Assembly: GCF_027947535.2 (NCBI RefSeq)
Contig: NZ_JAAGKO020000042.1
Location: 1 to 64,000, forward strand
Direction: 5' to 3'
From: Streptantibioticus silvisoli
Lineage (GTDB): Bacteria > Actinomycetota > Actinomycetes > Streptomycetales > Streptomycetaceae
Length of the DNA: 64,000 bases
Shown here piece after piece: positions 3,379-19,323 of the stretch; the stretch's first letter is position 1; the number at the start of each line of letters is the position of its first letter. The position numbers were made by a program, and so were the translations under genes. The notes under the pieces were generated by a model, which saw only the letters and a program-made list of their open reading frames with translations, had not been told where the DNA came from and made no database searches.

Positions 3379-4127
3379 ACCGGCGGCTCCTTGAGGGGGG
3401 TTGCGTCGATCCCGTCGGGGCGGGCCAGGATCACCGTGCGATCCGGGACCCGCGTCCAGCCGGGCGCGTCGTCGTAGGGTTCCGAGGCGACGACCACGTG
3501 GCTGCCGCGCTCCCATCGGTGCCAGAGCGTGTCGCCCCAGGCGGTGGCGGCGATGGTCTCGCCGTCGGTCAACAGCAGATTGAGCCGCGCCGGAACCCGG
3601 GCGGCCACCTCGGTGACGGTGTCGGCCAGCGCCTCACCCGGCGACGCGCCGTCACGCAACCGGTGCAGGACCAGCGCCCACACCAGCGCCGAGTCGCAGC
3701 GCGCCTCCAGGTTCAGCAGTTCCTCGGCCGGCAGCCGCCCGGCGAGCGCGGCGACCGAACCGGGCCAGCCGGGCAGGGCGCCGTTGTGGCTGAACAGCCA
3801 GCGCCCCTCGCCGTAGGGCGCCGCGGCCGAGGCGTCCGGCGCCGAACCGTCCGTCGTGTCCCGCACCGCGGCCAGGATCGAGCCGGACCGCACGACCCGG
3901 GCCAGGTCCGTGAACGACGGATCGGCCCACATCGGCCCCGCCCGGCGGTACCGCGCCGGCACTGGGTCACCGGGCGCGTACCACCCCACGCCGAACCCGT
4001 CCGCGTTCACCGTGCCGTGCTCCTGCTGACGCGGCGCCCACGCCTGTCGGTACAGCGCGTACGCCGGCTCGACCAGCACCGTGCCCAACCGCACGGGTGG
4101 ACCGAGATAGGCGACATGACGACACAT
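3375..4127 (-). CDS. egtC: Gamma-glutamyl hercynylcysteine sulfoxide hydrolase EgtC
   Basis: EgtC is a class II glutamine-amidotransferase-fold (Ntn) hydrolase that removes the gamma-glutamyl group from gamma-glutamyl-hercynylcysteine sulfoxide. The 250-residue sequence starts MCRHVAYLG, placing the catalytic cysteine at position 2 after Met removal, and contains NADGFGVGWY and the LFSHNGAL motif expected of the fold. It overlaps egtD by 4 bp but is separated from egtB by a 303-bp repetitive spacer, so its expression may partly depend on a signal in that spacer. No egtE lyase gene is present in the window. Confidence 0.95.
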   Translation of the reverse strand: MCRHVAYLGPPVRLGTVLVEPAYALYRQAWAPRQQEHGTVNADGFGVGWYAPGDPVPARYRRAGPMWADPSFTDLARVVRSGSILAAVRDTTDGSAPDASAAAPYGEGRWLFSHNGALPGWPGSVAALAGRLPAEELLNLEARCDSALVWALVLHRLRDGASPGEALADTVTEVAARVPARLNLLLTDGETIAATAWGDTLWHRWERGSHVVVASEPYDDAPGWTRVPDRTVILARPDGIDATPLKEPPV

Positions 4128-4430
4128 CGGAACTCCTCATTGACGCTCGGAATCGGCCTTCGACATCCGGGCTTGGGGCTTTGGAGCTTGGGGCTTCGGA
4201 GCTGGGGGCTTGGGGCCTGGGCTTGGGGCCTGGGGCAATCGACTCGGGCGTTCGGCTTGGGCTTGGGTAATGGGGCTTGGGCAATCGGCCGACGGGGCCT
4301 TGCAGGCGGCAGGCGCTTCGGACCGAGGGAATGGCGGTGCCACCGTGTCCCGTGCCCGGGCCGGCGCGCCCGGGCACGGGTCCACCTCGGGTGGGACCCG
4401 AGGACTCCGACGGATCACCGCCCGGCGCGG
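4128..4430. repeat. Repetitive spacer inside the egt cluster
   Basis: The only long gap in egtABCD. From about 4170 to 4290 it consists of degenerate GGGGCTTGGG/GGAGCTTGG units rich in G and T on the plus strand. The egtB-proximal half holds two strong inverted repeats (listed separately). No gene is supported. Confidence 0.6.
4349..4403 (-). terminator. Two adjacent hairpins between egtB and egtC
   Basis: A perfect 13-bp inverted repeat (4349-4361 with 4368-4380, 6-base loop) is followed by an 8-bp inverted repeat (4385-4392 with 4396-4403, 3-base loop). In the minus-strand transcript they lie 28 bp after the egtB stop and about 220 bp before egtC. No T-run follows, as is common in high-GC bacteria. 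They could attenuate transcription or mark RNA processing; the structure is certain, the function is inferred. Confidence 0.5.
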
Positions 4431-14987: not shown

Positions 14988-15773
14988 ATGTCCAGCCGAT
15001 CACCCTGGCTTGTCGCTCTACGGTCCGAGGCCGCAGCGACGCGCCGTCTCGTCTGCTTTCCGCACGCCGGGGGCGGGACGTTGTTCTTCCACTCCTGGGT
15101 GAAGCACGTCGGGCCGGACGTGGAGCTGCTGGCCGTCGGGTATCCGGGGCGGGAGAGCCGGTTCGAGGACCCGCTGGTGGGGTCCGTCGCTGAGGCGGCC
15201 CGTGCGGTGGCGGACGCGTTGCTGGCCGAACCGGCCCGGGAGACCGTGCTGTTCGGGCACAGCATGGGCGCGTCGATCGCCTACGAGACCCTGCGGCTGC
15301 TGGACGCGGACGGGCGGTCGGACGTCACCCGGCTGTGCGTGTCGGCGCGGCGGGCCACCGGGTTCCCCGAACCGATGAGGACCACCCCGCGCGACGACGA
15401 CGAACTGCTCAGCTCGATGCGGCAGCTGGGCGGCACGCATCCGGAGCTGCTGGAGAACGCCAGCTTTCGCGAGATGCTGTTTCCGATCATCCGGAACGAC
15501 TATCTGCTGGTCGACACCTACCGGCCGGACCCGGACGCCAAGCTGCTGGACGTCGACGTGCAGGTCGTGATCGGCGCCGACGATCCGCGGGTGAAGCCGG
15601 AGGAGGCAGCCGCCTGGGAGGGGGTCACGCGGGGCTCGTTCGACATGTGGACGATGACCGGCGGGCACTTCTACCTCACCGAACACGTCGCCGACGTGGT
15701 GTCCCTGGCGCTGACCGGCGAGCTGGCGGAGGCCGGTGGCGGTCAGCGGTCCCGGAGCCTGCGGACCCCGTAG
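14988..15773 (+). CDS. Type II thioesterase (alpha/beta hydrolase)
   Basis: A 261-residue GrsT/TEII-family thioesterase. These enzymes remove wrong acyl groups from carrier-protein phosphopantetheine arms of PKS or NRPS lines. It has the N-terminal FPHAGGGTLFFHSW, the nucleophile elbow GHSMG (Ser92), a GADDPRV loop carrying the acid, and GGHFYL with the catalytic histidine. GAAGGAGA sits 8 bases before the ATG. No PKS or NRPS gene is within the window, so it is an orphan whose client is elsewhere. Its end overlaps the convergent membrane-protein gene by 31 bp. Confidence 0.9.
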   Translation: MSSRSPWLVALRSEAAATRRLVCFPHAGGGTLFFHSWVKHVGPDVELLAVGYPGRESRFEDPLVGSVAEAARAVADALLAEPARETVLFGHSMGASIAYETLRLLDADGRSDVTRLCVSARRATGFPEPMRTTPRDDDELLSSMRQLGGTHPELLENASFREMLFPIIRNDYLLVDTYRPDPDAKLLDVDVQVVIGADDPRVKPEEAAAWEGVTRGSFDMWTMTGGHFYLTEHVADVVSLALTGELAEAGGGQRSRSLRTP

Positions 15774-16060
15774 AGCAGCAGTTGCGGCGCGACGACCAGG
15801 GCGAGGAAGAACAGCAGGTACCAGCCGAAGCCCGCGTGGTGGGTGTGCCGTTGCAGGACGTGGGCCAGGTAACCGCCGAGCGGGATGGCGACGGCGTTGT
15901 AGAGCTTGCCGCGAAAGGCGGCGTCGTCGCGCCGCATGCGGTCGATCCGCTCCGGGGTGTCCATGTACTCGCGGTAGTTCTCCAGGCGGTCGCTCCACTG
16001 CTCGGACCGGACCCACTCGTCCTCCCGGTCCCGCCCGGCCCCCGGCCGACTCCAGCTCAT
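15743..16060 (-). CDS. Small membrane protein of unknown function
   Basis: This 105-residue protein has a charged, Arg/Asp/Trp-rich N-terminal half (DEWVRSEQWSDRLENYREYM) and two hydrophobic segments (about 60-78 and 83-100), ending in the positive cluster RRLRDR, so both ends are probably cytoplasmic. I do not recognise the family. The ATG at 16060 is preferred over one 81 bp upstream because GGGGGAGAGG lies about 6 bases before it. Its 3' end overlaps the convergent thioesterase gene by 31 bp. Confidence 0.65.
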   Translation of the reverse strand: MSWSRPGAGRDREDEWVRSEQWSDRLENYREYMDTPERIDRMRRDDAAFRGKLYNAVAIPLGGYLAHVLQRHTHHAGFGWYLLFFLALVVAPQLLLYGVRRLRDR

Positions 16061-16531
16061 GTACGCCTCTCCCCCGTCACGACCGCGCCGCACCGCGCCG
16101 ACCCCGGCGCCACGCCCGCCATCCGGCGCCACGCCCGCCACGCACGCCGCGCCGACGACGGCTCCGGCTCCACGCCGGCTCCGACTCCGATGCCACCGCC
16201 GGCTCCAGCTCCCAGCTCCGACGCCAACGGATGACCACGCCTCAACACGCCAACGTCAACACACCACCACGCCAACGTCAACGCGCAGGCTGAACGTCAA
16301 CGGGAGCGACCGCGTCGACCCCGACCCCGACCGCGGCCCAGCACCGGCACCGGCACCGGCACCGGCACCCGCACCCGCACCCGCACCCGCACCCAACGAA
16401 CCCCGCGAACGCCCGTGCGCCGGAGCCCGAAGGCTCCGGCGCGGCAGCGGGATCGTGGAATCGACCGGTGTAATCGGCGGGACCGGTGAATCGGGGGAAT
16501 CGGTGGGATCGACCGGTGAGGGTCGGGGGAA
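16061..16531. repeat. Spacer with hexamer GCACCG/GCACCC array
   Basis: No gene supported. At about 16340-16394 there are consecutive GCACCG units that switch to GCACCC units, about nine in all. Neighbouring sequence is rich in CCGACNCC and CAACGTCAAC repeats (16245-16285). This lies downstream of the tandem hydrolase and upstream of the small membrane-protein gene. Confidence 0.65.
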
Positions 16532-18172
16532 TCACATGGTCACGGTCGGCTTGACGACGGTGTCGACGAAGTCGCCGATCGCGCCCAGGGTCTTCCCCAG
16601 CTGCTCGATGTGCGGGAAGTGACCGGCGTCGGGGACCGGAACGAAGTGGCCGTTGGGGAACGAGGCGGCGTAGGCACGGCCGTACTCGACCGTGGCGATG
16701 CCGTCCTGCTCACCCCAGGCCACCAACACCGGCACGGCGACACGGTGCAGGTGGTGCCGCAGCTTCGGGTCGTGCGTGAACGCCTCGCCCCCGTAAGTCG
16801 CGAGCGCCTTCTGGTTGGCGCCCACCGCGGCCCGCTGCTCGTCGCTGAAGGAGGAGAAGTCGGGGCGGAAGGCCGGGTTGACGAAGGACAGCTCGCCGAT
16901 CTGCGCCGGGGGCACGGTGCGGGGGTCGGTGATCTGCTTCTCGTCGCCGGGCTCGACGCCGAGTGCGTTGAGCAGGGTGAACGCGCCGATGCGGCCGCGG
17001 GTGTCGCGCAGTGCCATCTCGGCCGCGACCCAGCCACCGAACGAGTTGCCGATCACCATGACCCCGCTCAGGTCCAAGGTATCGAGCAGATCCAGGTAAG
17101 CGGTCGCCAGATCCGCGGCCGAGTCACACCACTGCGGACGCTCCGTGCCGTCGAACCCCGGATGCATCGCCGCGATGACGTACACGTGCTCGGACAACGC
17201 CGTCGCGAGACCCGCCATCGAACGGGGTCCGGCGCCGCCGTGCAGCACCAGCACGGCGCTGCTCTCGGTGGTGTCGCCGTACTCGGCGATGGTGACGGTC
17301 AGGCCGTCGGCCAGGTCGACGGTCCGGGAGGTGCTGGTGACGGCGGGGGCGGTCACGGTCGGCTTGACGACGGTGTCGACGAAGTCGCCGATCGCGCCCA
17401 GGGTCCGTCCCAGCTGCTCGATGTGCGGGAAGTGACCGGCGTCGGGGACCGGAACGAAGTGGCCGTTGGGGAACGAGGCGGCGTAAGCACGGCCGTACTC
17501 GACCGTGGCGATGCCGTCCTGCTCACCCCAGGCCACCAGCACCGGCACGGCGACACGGTGCAGGTGGTGCCGCAGCTTCGGGTCGTGCGTGAACGCCTCG
17601 CCCCCGTAGATCACGGTGGTGCGCCCATTAGCGGCCATGGTGGCCCGCTGCCGGTCGTCGAGCGCGGCGGGGCTCAGGCGGGTGGCCGGGTCGTGGAAGG
17701 CCAGCCGGCCCAGTTCGGCCACGGGGAGTCCGCGGGTGTCGACGAGTTCGTCGCGGCGGTCGGCCTCGACGCCGAGTGCGTTGAGCAGGGTCAGCGCGCC
17801 GATGCGGCCGCGGGTGTCGCGCAGTGCCATCTCGGCCGCGACCCAGCCACCGAACGAGTTGCCGATCACCATGACCCCGCTCAGATCCAAGGCATCGAGC
17901 AGATCCAGGTAAGCGGTCGCCAGATCCGCGGCCGAGTCACACCACTGCGGACGCTCCGTGCCGTCGAACCCCGGATGCGTCGCCGCGATGACGTACACGT
18001 GCTCGGACAGCGCGGTCGCGAACGCGGTCATGGAGTGGGGTCCGGCGCCGCCGTGCAGCAGCAGGACCGCGGTGCCCTCGGAGGTGTCGCCGTACTCGTC
18101 AACGGTGATCGACAGGCCGTCGGTCAGGTCGACGGTGCGAGAGGTGCTGGTGGACATCGGGTCGTTCATCAT
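16532..18172 (-). CDS. Fused tandem alpha/beta hydrolase (two complete domains)
   Basis: One 546-residue frame encodes two complete alpha/beta hydrolases in series, offset by exactly 813 bp (271 residues). Each has the oxyanion region LLLHGGAGP/LVLHGGAGP, nucleophile elbow GNSFGGW (Ser106, Ser377), acid in WGEQDG (Asp219, Asp490) and histidine in DAGHFPH (His247, His518), so both sites look active. Cores are nearly identical even at silent sites, but a cap-region block (residues 136-187 versus 407-458) is only about one-third identical. The ATG at 18172 has AAGGA six bases upstream. It diverges from an LLM oxidoreductase across a palindrome-rich promoter. Substrate unknown; esterase, epoxide hydrolase or C-C hydrolase are all possible. 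Confidence 0.9.
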   Translation of the reverse strand: MMNDPMSTSTSRTVDLTDGLSITVDEYGDTSEGTAVLLLHGGAGPHSMTAFATALSEHVYVIAATHPGFDGTERPQWCDSAADLATAYLDLLDALDLSGVMVIGNSFGGWVAAEMALRDTRGRIGALTLLNALGVEADRRDELVDTRGLPVAELGRLAFHDPATRLSPAALDDRQRATMAANGRTTVIYGGEAFTHDPKLRHHLHRVAVPVLVAWGEQDGIATVEYGRAYAASFPNGHFVPVPDAGHFPHIEQLGRTLGAIGDFVDTVVKPTVTAPAVTSTSRTVDLADGLTVTIAEYGDTTESSAVLVLHGGAGPRSMAGLATALSEHVYVIAAMHPGFDGTERPQWCDSAADLATAYLDLLDTLDLSGVMVIGNSFGGWVAAEMALRDTRGRIGAFTLLNALGVEPGDEKQITDPRTVPPAQIGELSFVNPAFRPDFSSFSDEQRAAVGANQKALATYGGEAFTHDPKLRHHLHRVAVPVLVAWGEQDGIATVEYGRAYAASFPNGHFVPVPDAGHFPHIEQLGKTLGAIGDFVDTVVKPTVTM

Positions 18173-18184
18173 GCGGAATCCTTA

Positions 18185-18206
18185 TCCTGAGGGCTGGCTC
18201 TCAGGA
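18185..18206 (-). promoter_or_regulatory. Inverted repeat in leader of tandem hydrolase
   Basis: TCCTGAG (18185-18191) and CTCAGGA (18200-18206) form a 7-bp inverted repeat 13 bp upstream of the hydrolase start codon, partly overlapping a direct repeat GGCTCTC (18196-18202 and 18215-18221). It could be an operator or a leader hairpin near the ribosome-binding site. Confidence 0.45.
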
Positions 18207-18239
18207 ATATAGAAGGCTCTCGCCACTTCATGCAAGCCC

Positions 18240-18442
18240 ACTCTCACCACGAGAGTCGCCCCGCCACGAATGGGCGATGCGGCGGCGGCCGGCGGAAGGG
18301 GTGAGCGGGACGCAGTCGCTCCGCGAGCAATGCCACCAACCGACCGCCGCCACGCCAAGCAATGCAGACGGCACACCCTCACCACGAGAGGTAACTTGCA
18401 TCGCACGACGCGAGTCATCTACGTTAACGAGAGTACACTCTC
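18240..18442. promoter_or_regulatory. Palindromic operators in divergent promoter
   Basis: Three related sites lie between the divergent hydrolase and LLM genes: ACTCTCACCACGAGAGT (18240-18256, 6-bp arms), an imperfect CCTCACCACGAGAGG (about 18377-18391), and GAGAGTACACTCTC (18429-18442, 6-bp arms, 2-base spacer). The first two share the ACCAC core. The last site is 14 bp before the LLM start codon, so binding there would block initiation. No regulator gene is adjacent. Confidence 0.6.
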
Positions 18443-18456
18443 ACAAAGGGGCAGCG

Positions 18457-19323
18457 GTGGAGATCGGTCTGCACATCTCAGACTTCACGTATCCGAGCGG
18501 GCCGAGCGGGCTCGCCGACGACCTCACGCGGGTCGTGGTGGCCGCCGAGGAGGCCGGCTTCGCGCGGGTCAGCGTCATGGACCATCTCTGGCAGATCGGC
18601 GTGGCGGGCCCGCCGGAGCACGACATGCTGGAGGCGTACACCACGCTCGGCTACCTCGCGGCCCGCACCTCGCGCGTTCAGCTACTGGCCTGGGTGACGG
18701 CCGTCAGCTACCGGCAGCCGGGGATGCTCGCCAAGCTGGTGAGCACGCTCGACGTCCTGTCGAAGGGCCGCGCCTGGCTCGGCATCGGCGCGGCCTGGAA
18801 CAGTGCGGAGGCCGCCGGCCTGGGCCTGCCGTTCCCCGGCACCGCCGAGCGGTTCGAACGGCTGGAGGAGACGCTGCAGATCTGCCGGCAGATGTGGAGC
18901 GCGAACGAGGGCCCGTACGAGGGCCGGCACTACCGGCTCACGCGCACGCTGAACGTCCCGCAGCCGATCCGGTACCCGCCGATCCTGATCGGCGGCGGCG
19001 GGGAGAAGAAGACCCTGCGCCTGGTCGCGCGCTACGCGCAGGCCTGCAACCTGTTCGCCGGCCCGGACCTGGAGCGCAAGCTCGACGTCCTGCGCGAGCA
19101 CTGCCGGGCCGAGGGCCGCGACTACGACGACATCGAGAAGACCGTCATGCTCTCCCTCGACCCGGGCGACCGGGGCGAGAAGATCGACGGCCTGCTGGCG
19201 CAGTTGGAACGGCTCGCCGCGCTCGGCTTCGCCGAAGCGCACGGCCGGGTACCGCGGGTCTGGGAGACCGAGCGCCTCGCCCTGATCGGCAGGGAGATCG
19301 TGCCGGCGGTCTCCGGGCTCTGA
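18457..19323 (+). CDS. LLM-class F420-dependent oxidoreductase
   Basis: A 288-residue luciferase-like protein: EIGLHISDFTYPSGP at the N-terminus, SVMDHLWQIG, RAWLGIGAAWNSAEA around residue 105, and ILIGGGGEKKTLRLVARYA near 185, all typical of F420-dependent LLM enzymes. The GTG at 18457 is chosen because AAAGGGGC precedes it; an ATG 180 bp upstream would add a low-quality peptide spanning the operator sites. It diverges from the tandem hydrolase gene, suggesting joint control and perhaps one catabolic or detoxification route (inference). The substrate is unknown. Confidence 0.88.
   Translation: MEIGLHISDFTYPSGPSGLADDLTRVVVAAEEAGFARVSVMDHLWQIGVAGPPEHDMLEAYTTLGYLAARTSRVQLLAWVTAVSYRQPGMLAKLVSTLDVLSKGRAWLGIGAAWNSAEAAGLGLPFPGTAERFERLEETLQICRQMWSANEGPYEGRHYRLTRTLNVPQPIRYPPILIGGGGEKKTLRLVARYAQACNLFAGPDLERKLDVLREHCRAEGRDYDDIEKTVMLSLDPGDRGEKIDGLLAQLERLAALGFAEAHGRVPRVWETERLALIGREIVPAVSGL

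What the first reader, a model, noticed from the sequence alone, without database searches (positions are those of the whole stretch)
16532..18172. Tandem alpha/beta hydrolase with near-identical cores but divergent caps
Two complete hydrolase domains share one frame at an exact 813-bp offset. The 3' parts (16532-16798 versus 17345-17611) differ at only a few bases, and the segment around the nucleophile (about 16960-17150 versus 17773-17963) is also almost identical. Yet the block between them (16799-16954 versus 17612-17767), which should form the cap over the active site, is only about one-third identical by hand alignment. High identity at silent sites outside and low identity inside points to gene conversion of the cores, or a cap swap, giving one polypeptide with two specificities.
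Basis: seen in the sequence. Interest (0 to 1): 0.75.

Follow-up and report, generated by a model that had tools for sequence, protein, structure and literature searches.

The report
Fused twin hydrolase with mismatched caps
One actinomycete gene encodes two joined copies of an ordinary hydrolase enzyme; recombination appears to have kept their catalytic cores nearly identical but left them with two quite different lids over the active site, so one protein may act on two substrates.

Summary
One 546-aa ORF (18172-16532, minus strand) holds two complete alpha/beta-hydrolase domains at an exact 813-bp offset, each with Ser-Asp-His motifs. The cores differ at 8 of 164 codons (silent differences 4/155). 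The cap, placed by AlphaFold models between the strand after the nucleophile helix and the Asp strand, is 31% identical in protein (58% in DNA). Silent divergence in the cap (3/16) and in the N-terminal 46 codons (7/32) approaches the family level (26-32%). Family rates predict about 92% cap identity for a pair this alike in the core. Core and cap trees conflict: cores are sisters (100/99), caps are not (AU p=0.027). Selection on a recent duplicate does not explain this; recombination does, most simply intragenic conversion of two core tracts. A cap import is not excluded. Single-domain relatives are common; the fusion was found only here among about 395 family and 395 class genomes. Dual specificity is inferred, not shown. 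In passing: a conserved promoter-operator module, probably bound by a TetR-family regulator, precedes this gene, its paralogue and the divergent F420-type oxidoreductase gene.

The parts
16532..18172 (-). Two-domain alpha/beta hydrolase gene, 546 aa
   Evidence: Single ORF; Pfam Abhydrolase_1/Abhydrolase_6 in both halves
17342..18172 (-). Unit D1 (277 aa): motifs GNSFGG at 104-109 (Ser106), GEQDG at 216 (Asp219), AGHFPH at 245 (His247)
   Evidence: Motif positions; invariant S106, D219, H247 in the 32-row alignment; AlphaFold mean pLDDT 93.2
16535..17341 (-). Unit D2 (269 aa): Ser100, Asp213, His241 of the unit (Ser377, Asp490, His518 of the whole protein)
   Evidence: Motif positions; invariant columns; AlphaFold mean pLDDT 93.9
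17609..17764 (-). Cap of D1 (codons 137-188), nearest to the L102/L103 type
   Evidence: 31% aa identical to the D2 cap; cap tree with L102, 91/75; helices 151-158 and 173-190 between strands 124-130 and 211-216
16796..16951 (-). Cap of D2, L009/L095 type (59-63% identical to these)
17765..18007 (-). Core tract A of D1 (codons 56-136), near-identical to 16952-17194 of D2
   Evidence: 5 nt differences in 243; exact runs of 85 and 90 nt
17351..17608 (-). Core tract B of D1, near-identical to 16538-16795 of D2
   Evidence: 5 nt differences in 83 codons; exact runs of 69, 52, 77, 55 nt
18188..18246 (-). Promoter-operator module of the hydrolase: TGAGAGTGGGCTTGCA ... TATATT ... TGAGAGCCAGCCCTCA
   Evidence: same module before single-domain relatives
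18385..18443 (+). Second copy of the module, in front of the divergent F420-type LLM oxidoreductase gene
   Evidence: gene (TIGR03560)

Best explanation
The gene is an in-frame head-to-tail fusion of two members of one actinomycete single-domain alpha/beta-hydrolase family. Inferred: the units descend from two diverged paralogues (D2 of the L009 type, D1 of a lineage nearer L102), and recombination between the adjacent repeats copied the D2-type core over D1 in two tracts, sparing the N-terminus and the cap. Inferred: both active sites are catalytic and, because the cap shapes the substrate pocket in this superfamily (established knowledge), the chain offers two substrate ranges from one transcript. 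Expression is probably controlled by a TetR-family repressor encoded beside the single-domain paralogue.
For: Silent differences: core 4/155, cap 3/16 (p=0.019), N-part 7/32 (p=0.0005); third positions core 4/164, cap 16/52 (p=4e-8). Family mean silent difference is 26% core, 26% cap, 32% N, so cap and N of D1/D2 are near family level and only the cores are young. Over 703 family pairs cap identity follows core identity; D1/D2 has 0.31 against 0.92 predicted, residual sd 0.096. Permutation 0/20,000. Trees: cores D1+D2 100/99; caps sisters in 0% of 200 bootstrap trees, AU p=0.027; core of D1 with L102 rejected, AU p=0.006. D2 is nearest the L009/L095 group in cap and core alike, whereas D1 has an L009-like core and an L102/L103-like cap. 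Triads and folds intact. Single-domain relatives common, fusion only here.
Against: The cap tree rests on 52 columns, D1's cap is a long branch (0.71), and forcing D1 into the D2 half of that tree is not rejected (p=0.19). The N-part tree leaves D1+D2 as possible sisters (54/0). Only 16 silent-testable codons in the cap. No unconverted close relative of D1 is known. Two conversion tracts cost as many events as two imports. Substrates and activity are untested.
Confidence: 0.6

Rival explanations
1. Cap (and N-terminal) swap: the gene duplicated recently as a whole, and D1 then took its cap and its first 55 codons from another homologue of the L102 type by recombination with an outside donor.
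For: D1 cap nearest L102/L103 (54%), cap tree 91/75 with L102. The same 9 bases ACCGTGACC stand at the unit junction and just before the stop, as a duplication between the two ends of one gene would leave.
Against: No donor found: the best outside match to the D1 cap is 54-56%. Needs two separate imports and an external donor. The own-genome paralogue on C109 has a third cap type (38% to D1) and is not the donor.
Confidence: 0.25
2. Recent duplication followed by strong diversifying selection on the cap alone, without recombination.
For: The cap is the fastest part in the whole family (mean 52% identical against 70-75% for the core).
Against: Silent sites are also raised in the cap and in the N-part; cap identity is about six residual standard deviations below the family line; trees conflict.
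Confidence: 0.05
3. Assembly artefact: two separate genes or alleles with near-identical cores were joined, or their cores made alike, by the assembler.
For: Draft genome of 130 contigs, 2.9% contamination; exact shared runs up to 90 nt; fusion not seen in other genomes.
Against: No exact shared run exceeds 90 nt, shorter than ordinary reads; residual differences are spread through both cores; the frame is kept over the junction and only one copy of each half exists in the genome.
Confidence: 0.08

Closest known systems
Single-domain alpha/beta-fold hydrolases of Streptomycetaceae and Nocardia (L009 Actinacidiphila oryziradicis 75%, L010 Nocardia alni 62%, own-genome paralogue L002 about 60%)
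   Same: Triad motifs, cap place and length, promoter-operator module
   Different: One domain only; no fusion in any of the family, order and class genomes sampled
Meta-cleavage-product C-C hydrolases (HsaD, BphD, CumD, DxnB2)
   Same: Best sequence matches in the PDB (E about 3e-12) and among the best fold matches
   Different: About 20-25% identical; scores far below the NCBIfam cut-offs for HsaD and BphD; no ring-cleavage genes seen beside it
Lipase/esterase-type alpha/beta hydrolases (phospholipase A 6i8w, ABHD6 7ots, arylesterases)
   Same: Best fold matches, TM 0.7-0.83
   Different: 18-25% identical; single domain
Concerted evolution by gene conversion between paralogues
   Same: Homogenised tracts beside diverged ones (kind of event described for mammalian gene pairs in PMC2720389; title and abstract only read)
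   Different: Here within one fused reading frame, with tract borders at the structural cap

Membership tests
Alpha/beta hydrolase superfamily (Pfam Abhydrolase_1/6) | Profile match above gathering score, both units | tested here: met
   75.9 and 72.4 bits against 25.8
Alpha/beta hydrolase superfamily (Pfam Abhydrolase_1/6) | Nucleophile elbow, acid, histidine in order, both units | tested here: met
   GNSFGG, GEQDG, AGHFPH in both, Ser, Asp and His invariant in 32 sequences
Alpha/beta hydrolase superfamily (Pfam Abhydrolase_1/6) | Predicted fold | tested here: met
   pLDDT 93-94; 1572 and 1485 PDB matches at E up to 0.001
HsaD/BphD meta-cleavage-product hydrolases | NCBIfam equivalog score | tested here: not met
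   57.9 of 400 bits (HsaD), 33.1 of 462 bits (BphD)
3-oxoadipate enol-lactonase PcaD | NCBIfam equivalog score | tested here: not met
   61.2 of 255.9 bits
Gene-conversion mosaic | Tract-wise drop of silent divergence and tree conflict | tested here: met
Gene-conversion mosaic | Donor identified and direction shown | tested here: inconclusive
   L009-like core in both units suggests D2 as donor; no unconverted relative of D1 found

The most novel reading that the evidence does not exclude
A self-maintaining two-specificity enzyme: recombination between fused repeats keeps the catalytic cores identical while selection shields the two caps, so that one chain evolves as a common core with exchangeable lids.
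Probability: 0.2. Interest if true: 0.65.

Novelty: new variant of a known kind. Interest (0 to 1): 0.42.

Why it matters
Caps largely set substrate range in alpha/beta hydrolases. A natural protein with two near-identical cores under two different caps is a built-in control experiment for what a cap does, and shows recombination borders falling at a structural module.

Tried and rejected
Tandem-looking hits L056, L073, L081 proved to be two distant neighbouring domains, 22-34% identical to ours, not this fusion. The own-genome paralogue (C109) was considered as cap donor and rejected (38% to the D1 cap). Class-wide and junction-specific order-wide searches found no other fusion. Paper searches for hydrolase cap conversion and for the TGAGAG operator gave nothing relevant. 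Plasmid collection: only relatives below 60%. Selection alone and chance were rejected on silent sites, trees and permutation.

Full report
What is there. The minus-strand ORF 18172-16532 encodes 546 aa. Both halves match Abhydrolase_1 and Abhydrolase_6 well above cut-off. At an offset of 271 codons the halves share 215 of 275 residues; neighbouring offsets give 13-29. GNSFGG, GEQDG and AGHFPH stand at 104/375, 216/487 and 245/516, and the Ser, Asp and His are invariant among 32 sequences.

How the differences lie. N-part (codons 10-55): 25 nt differences; core A (56-136): 5; cap (137-188): 67; core B (189-271): 5. Silent differences at codons of unchanged residue are 7/32, 1/74, 3/16 and 3/81. 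With codon rates taken from 38 single-domain relatives, the unevenness was not reached in 20,000 permutations.

What the divergent block is. AlphaFold models of both units (pLDDT 93.2 and 93.9) place it between the strand that follows the nucleophile helix (124-130 in D1) and the strand that leads to Asp (211-216), as helices 151-158 and 173-190, the usual place of the cap. This is a predicted structure, not an observed one. Nearest solved folds are lipase/esterase and C-C hydrolase types at 18-25% identity, so the substrate cannot be named.

Where it comes from. The single-domain form is widespread in the family: 94 of 395 genomes have a match at E up to 1e-50, and outside this genome no listed match spans both units. 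No other fusion was found in the class sample or with a junction query in the order sample. These samples overlap and do not cover every species. Across 703 family pairs, cap identity tracks core identity; the D1/D2 pair has 98% core and 31% cap against a prediction of 92%. In the core tree D1 and D2 are sisters (100/99); in the cap tree they lie on opposite sides of the deepest split (100/95), D2 with L095, D1 with L102. Sisterhood of the caps is rejected at p=0.027, sisterhood of D1 and L102 in the core at p=0.006. D2 is L009-like throughout; D1 is L009-like in the core only. The simplest account is that the D2-type core was copied over D1. An import of cap and N-part into D1 from outside fits nearly as well. 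The cap tree is short and D1's branch long, so the source of D1's cap is not settled (p=0.19 for D1 with the D2 half).

The junction. D1 ends ...VVKP-TVT-APAVTSTSRTVDL and D2 ends ...VVKP-TVT-M-stop. The nine bases ACCGTGACC stand at both places, and several relatives begin MTVTAP. A fusion or duplication through this short repeat would explain the in-frame joint without a linker. This is inference.

Regulation (seen in passing, then followed). A module TGAGAGTNNNCTTGCA-N27-TGAGAGYNAGCTCTCA stands before this gene, before the divergent F420-type oxidoreductase gene and before the paralogue on C109; under the pattern used these are the only places in 8.7 Mb, the reversed control giving none. 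In 121 family genomes it occurs at 29 places, against one for the reversed control; by comparison with the coordinates, 24 of these lie within about 1.5 kb upstream of a homologue of this hydrolase. TTGCA(T/C) and TA-rich hexamers inside it look like -35 and -10 boxes. In several relatives the hydrolase lies near a TetR-family gene and a cupin gene whose upstream region holds the same palindrome. The only close match to that TetR in this genome lies on C109, with similar boxes upstream. A trans-acting TetR repressor is therefore likely but untested.

Verdict. The finding is genuine and more than a simple duplication. It is a recombination mosaic in a fused two-domain enzyme of a known superfamily, found so far in one genome. 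Function as a two-specificity enzyme is plausible and cheap to test, but not shown.

Noticed in passing
18188-18246 (-) and 18385-18443 (+): Conserved promoter-operator module (TGAGAGTNNNCTTGCA, 42-43 bp further TGAGAGYNAGCTCTCA) on both sides of the divergent region; only three such places in the genome (third: C109 paralogue), and 24 of 29 places in 121 family genomes precede a homologue of this hydrolase.
   Followed up: partly
L158:about 3598-4230 (C109), L159:8319-8981, L163:5656-6255, L164:2205-2843: TetR-family gene, often beside a cupin gene, near single-domain relatives, with the same palindrome in its upstream region; likely the regulator.
   Followed up: partly
18460-19323: Divergent gene of the TIGR03560 F420-dependent LLM oxidoreductase family, apparently co-regulated with the hydrolase.
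   Followed up: partly
17348-17362 and 16532-16549: Nine-base repeat ACCGTGACC at the unit junction and just before the stop codon, a possible point of fusion or duplication.
   Followed up: partly
L164:4462-5289 and 15983-16810: In genome G057 the single-domain hydrolase lies in an inverted duplication of several genes, with identical copies about 11 kb apart.
   Followed up: no
14988-15773: Type II thioesterase-like gene (Pfam Thioesterase) close by; no biosynthetic cluster was looked for.
   Followed up: no
16348-16395: Short run of CACCGG/CACCCG six-base repeats downstream of the gene.
   Followed up: no
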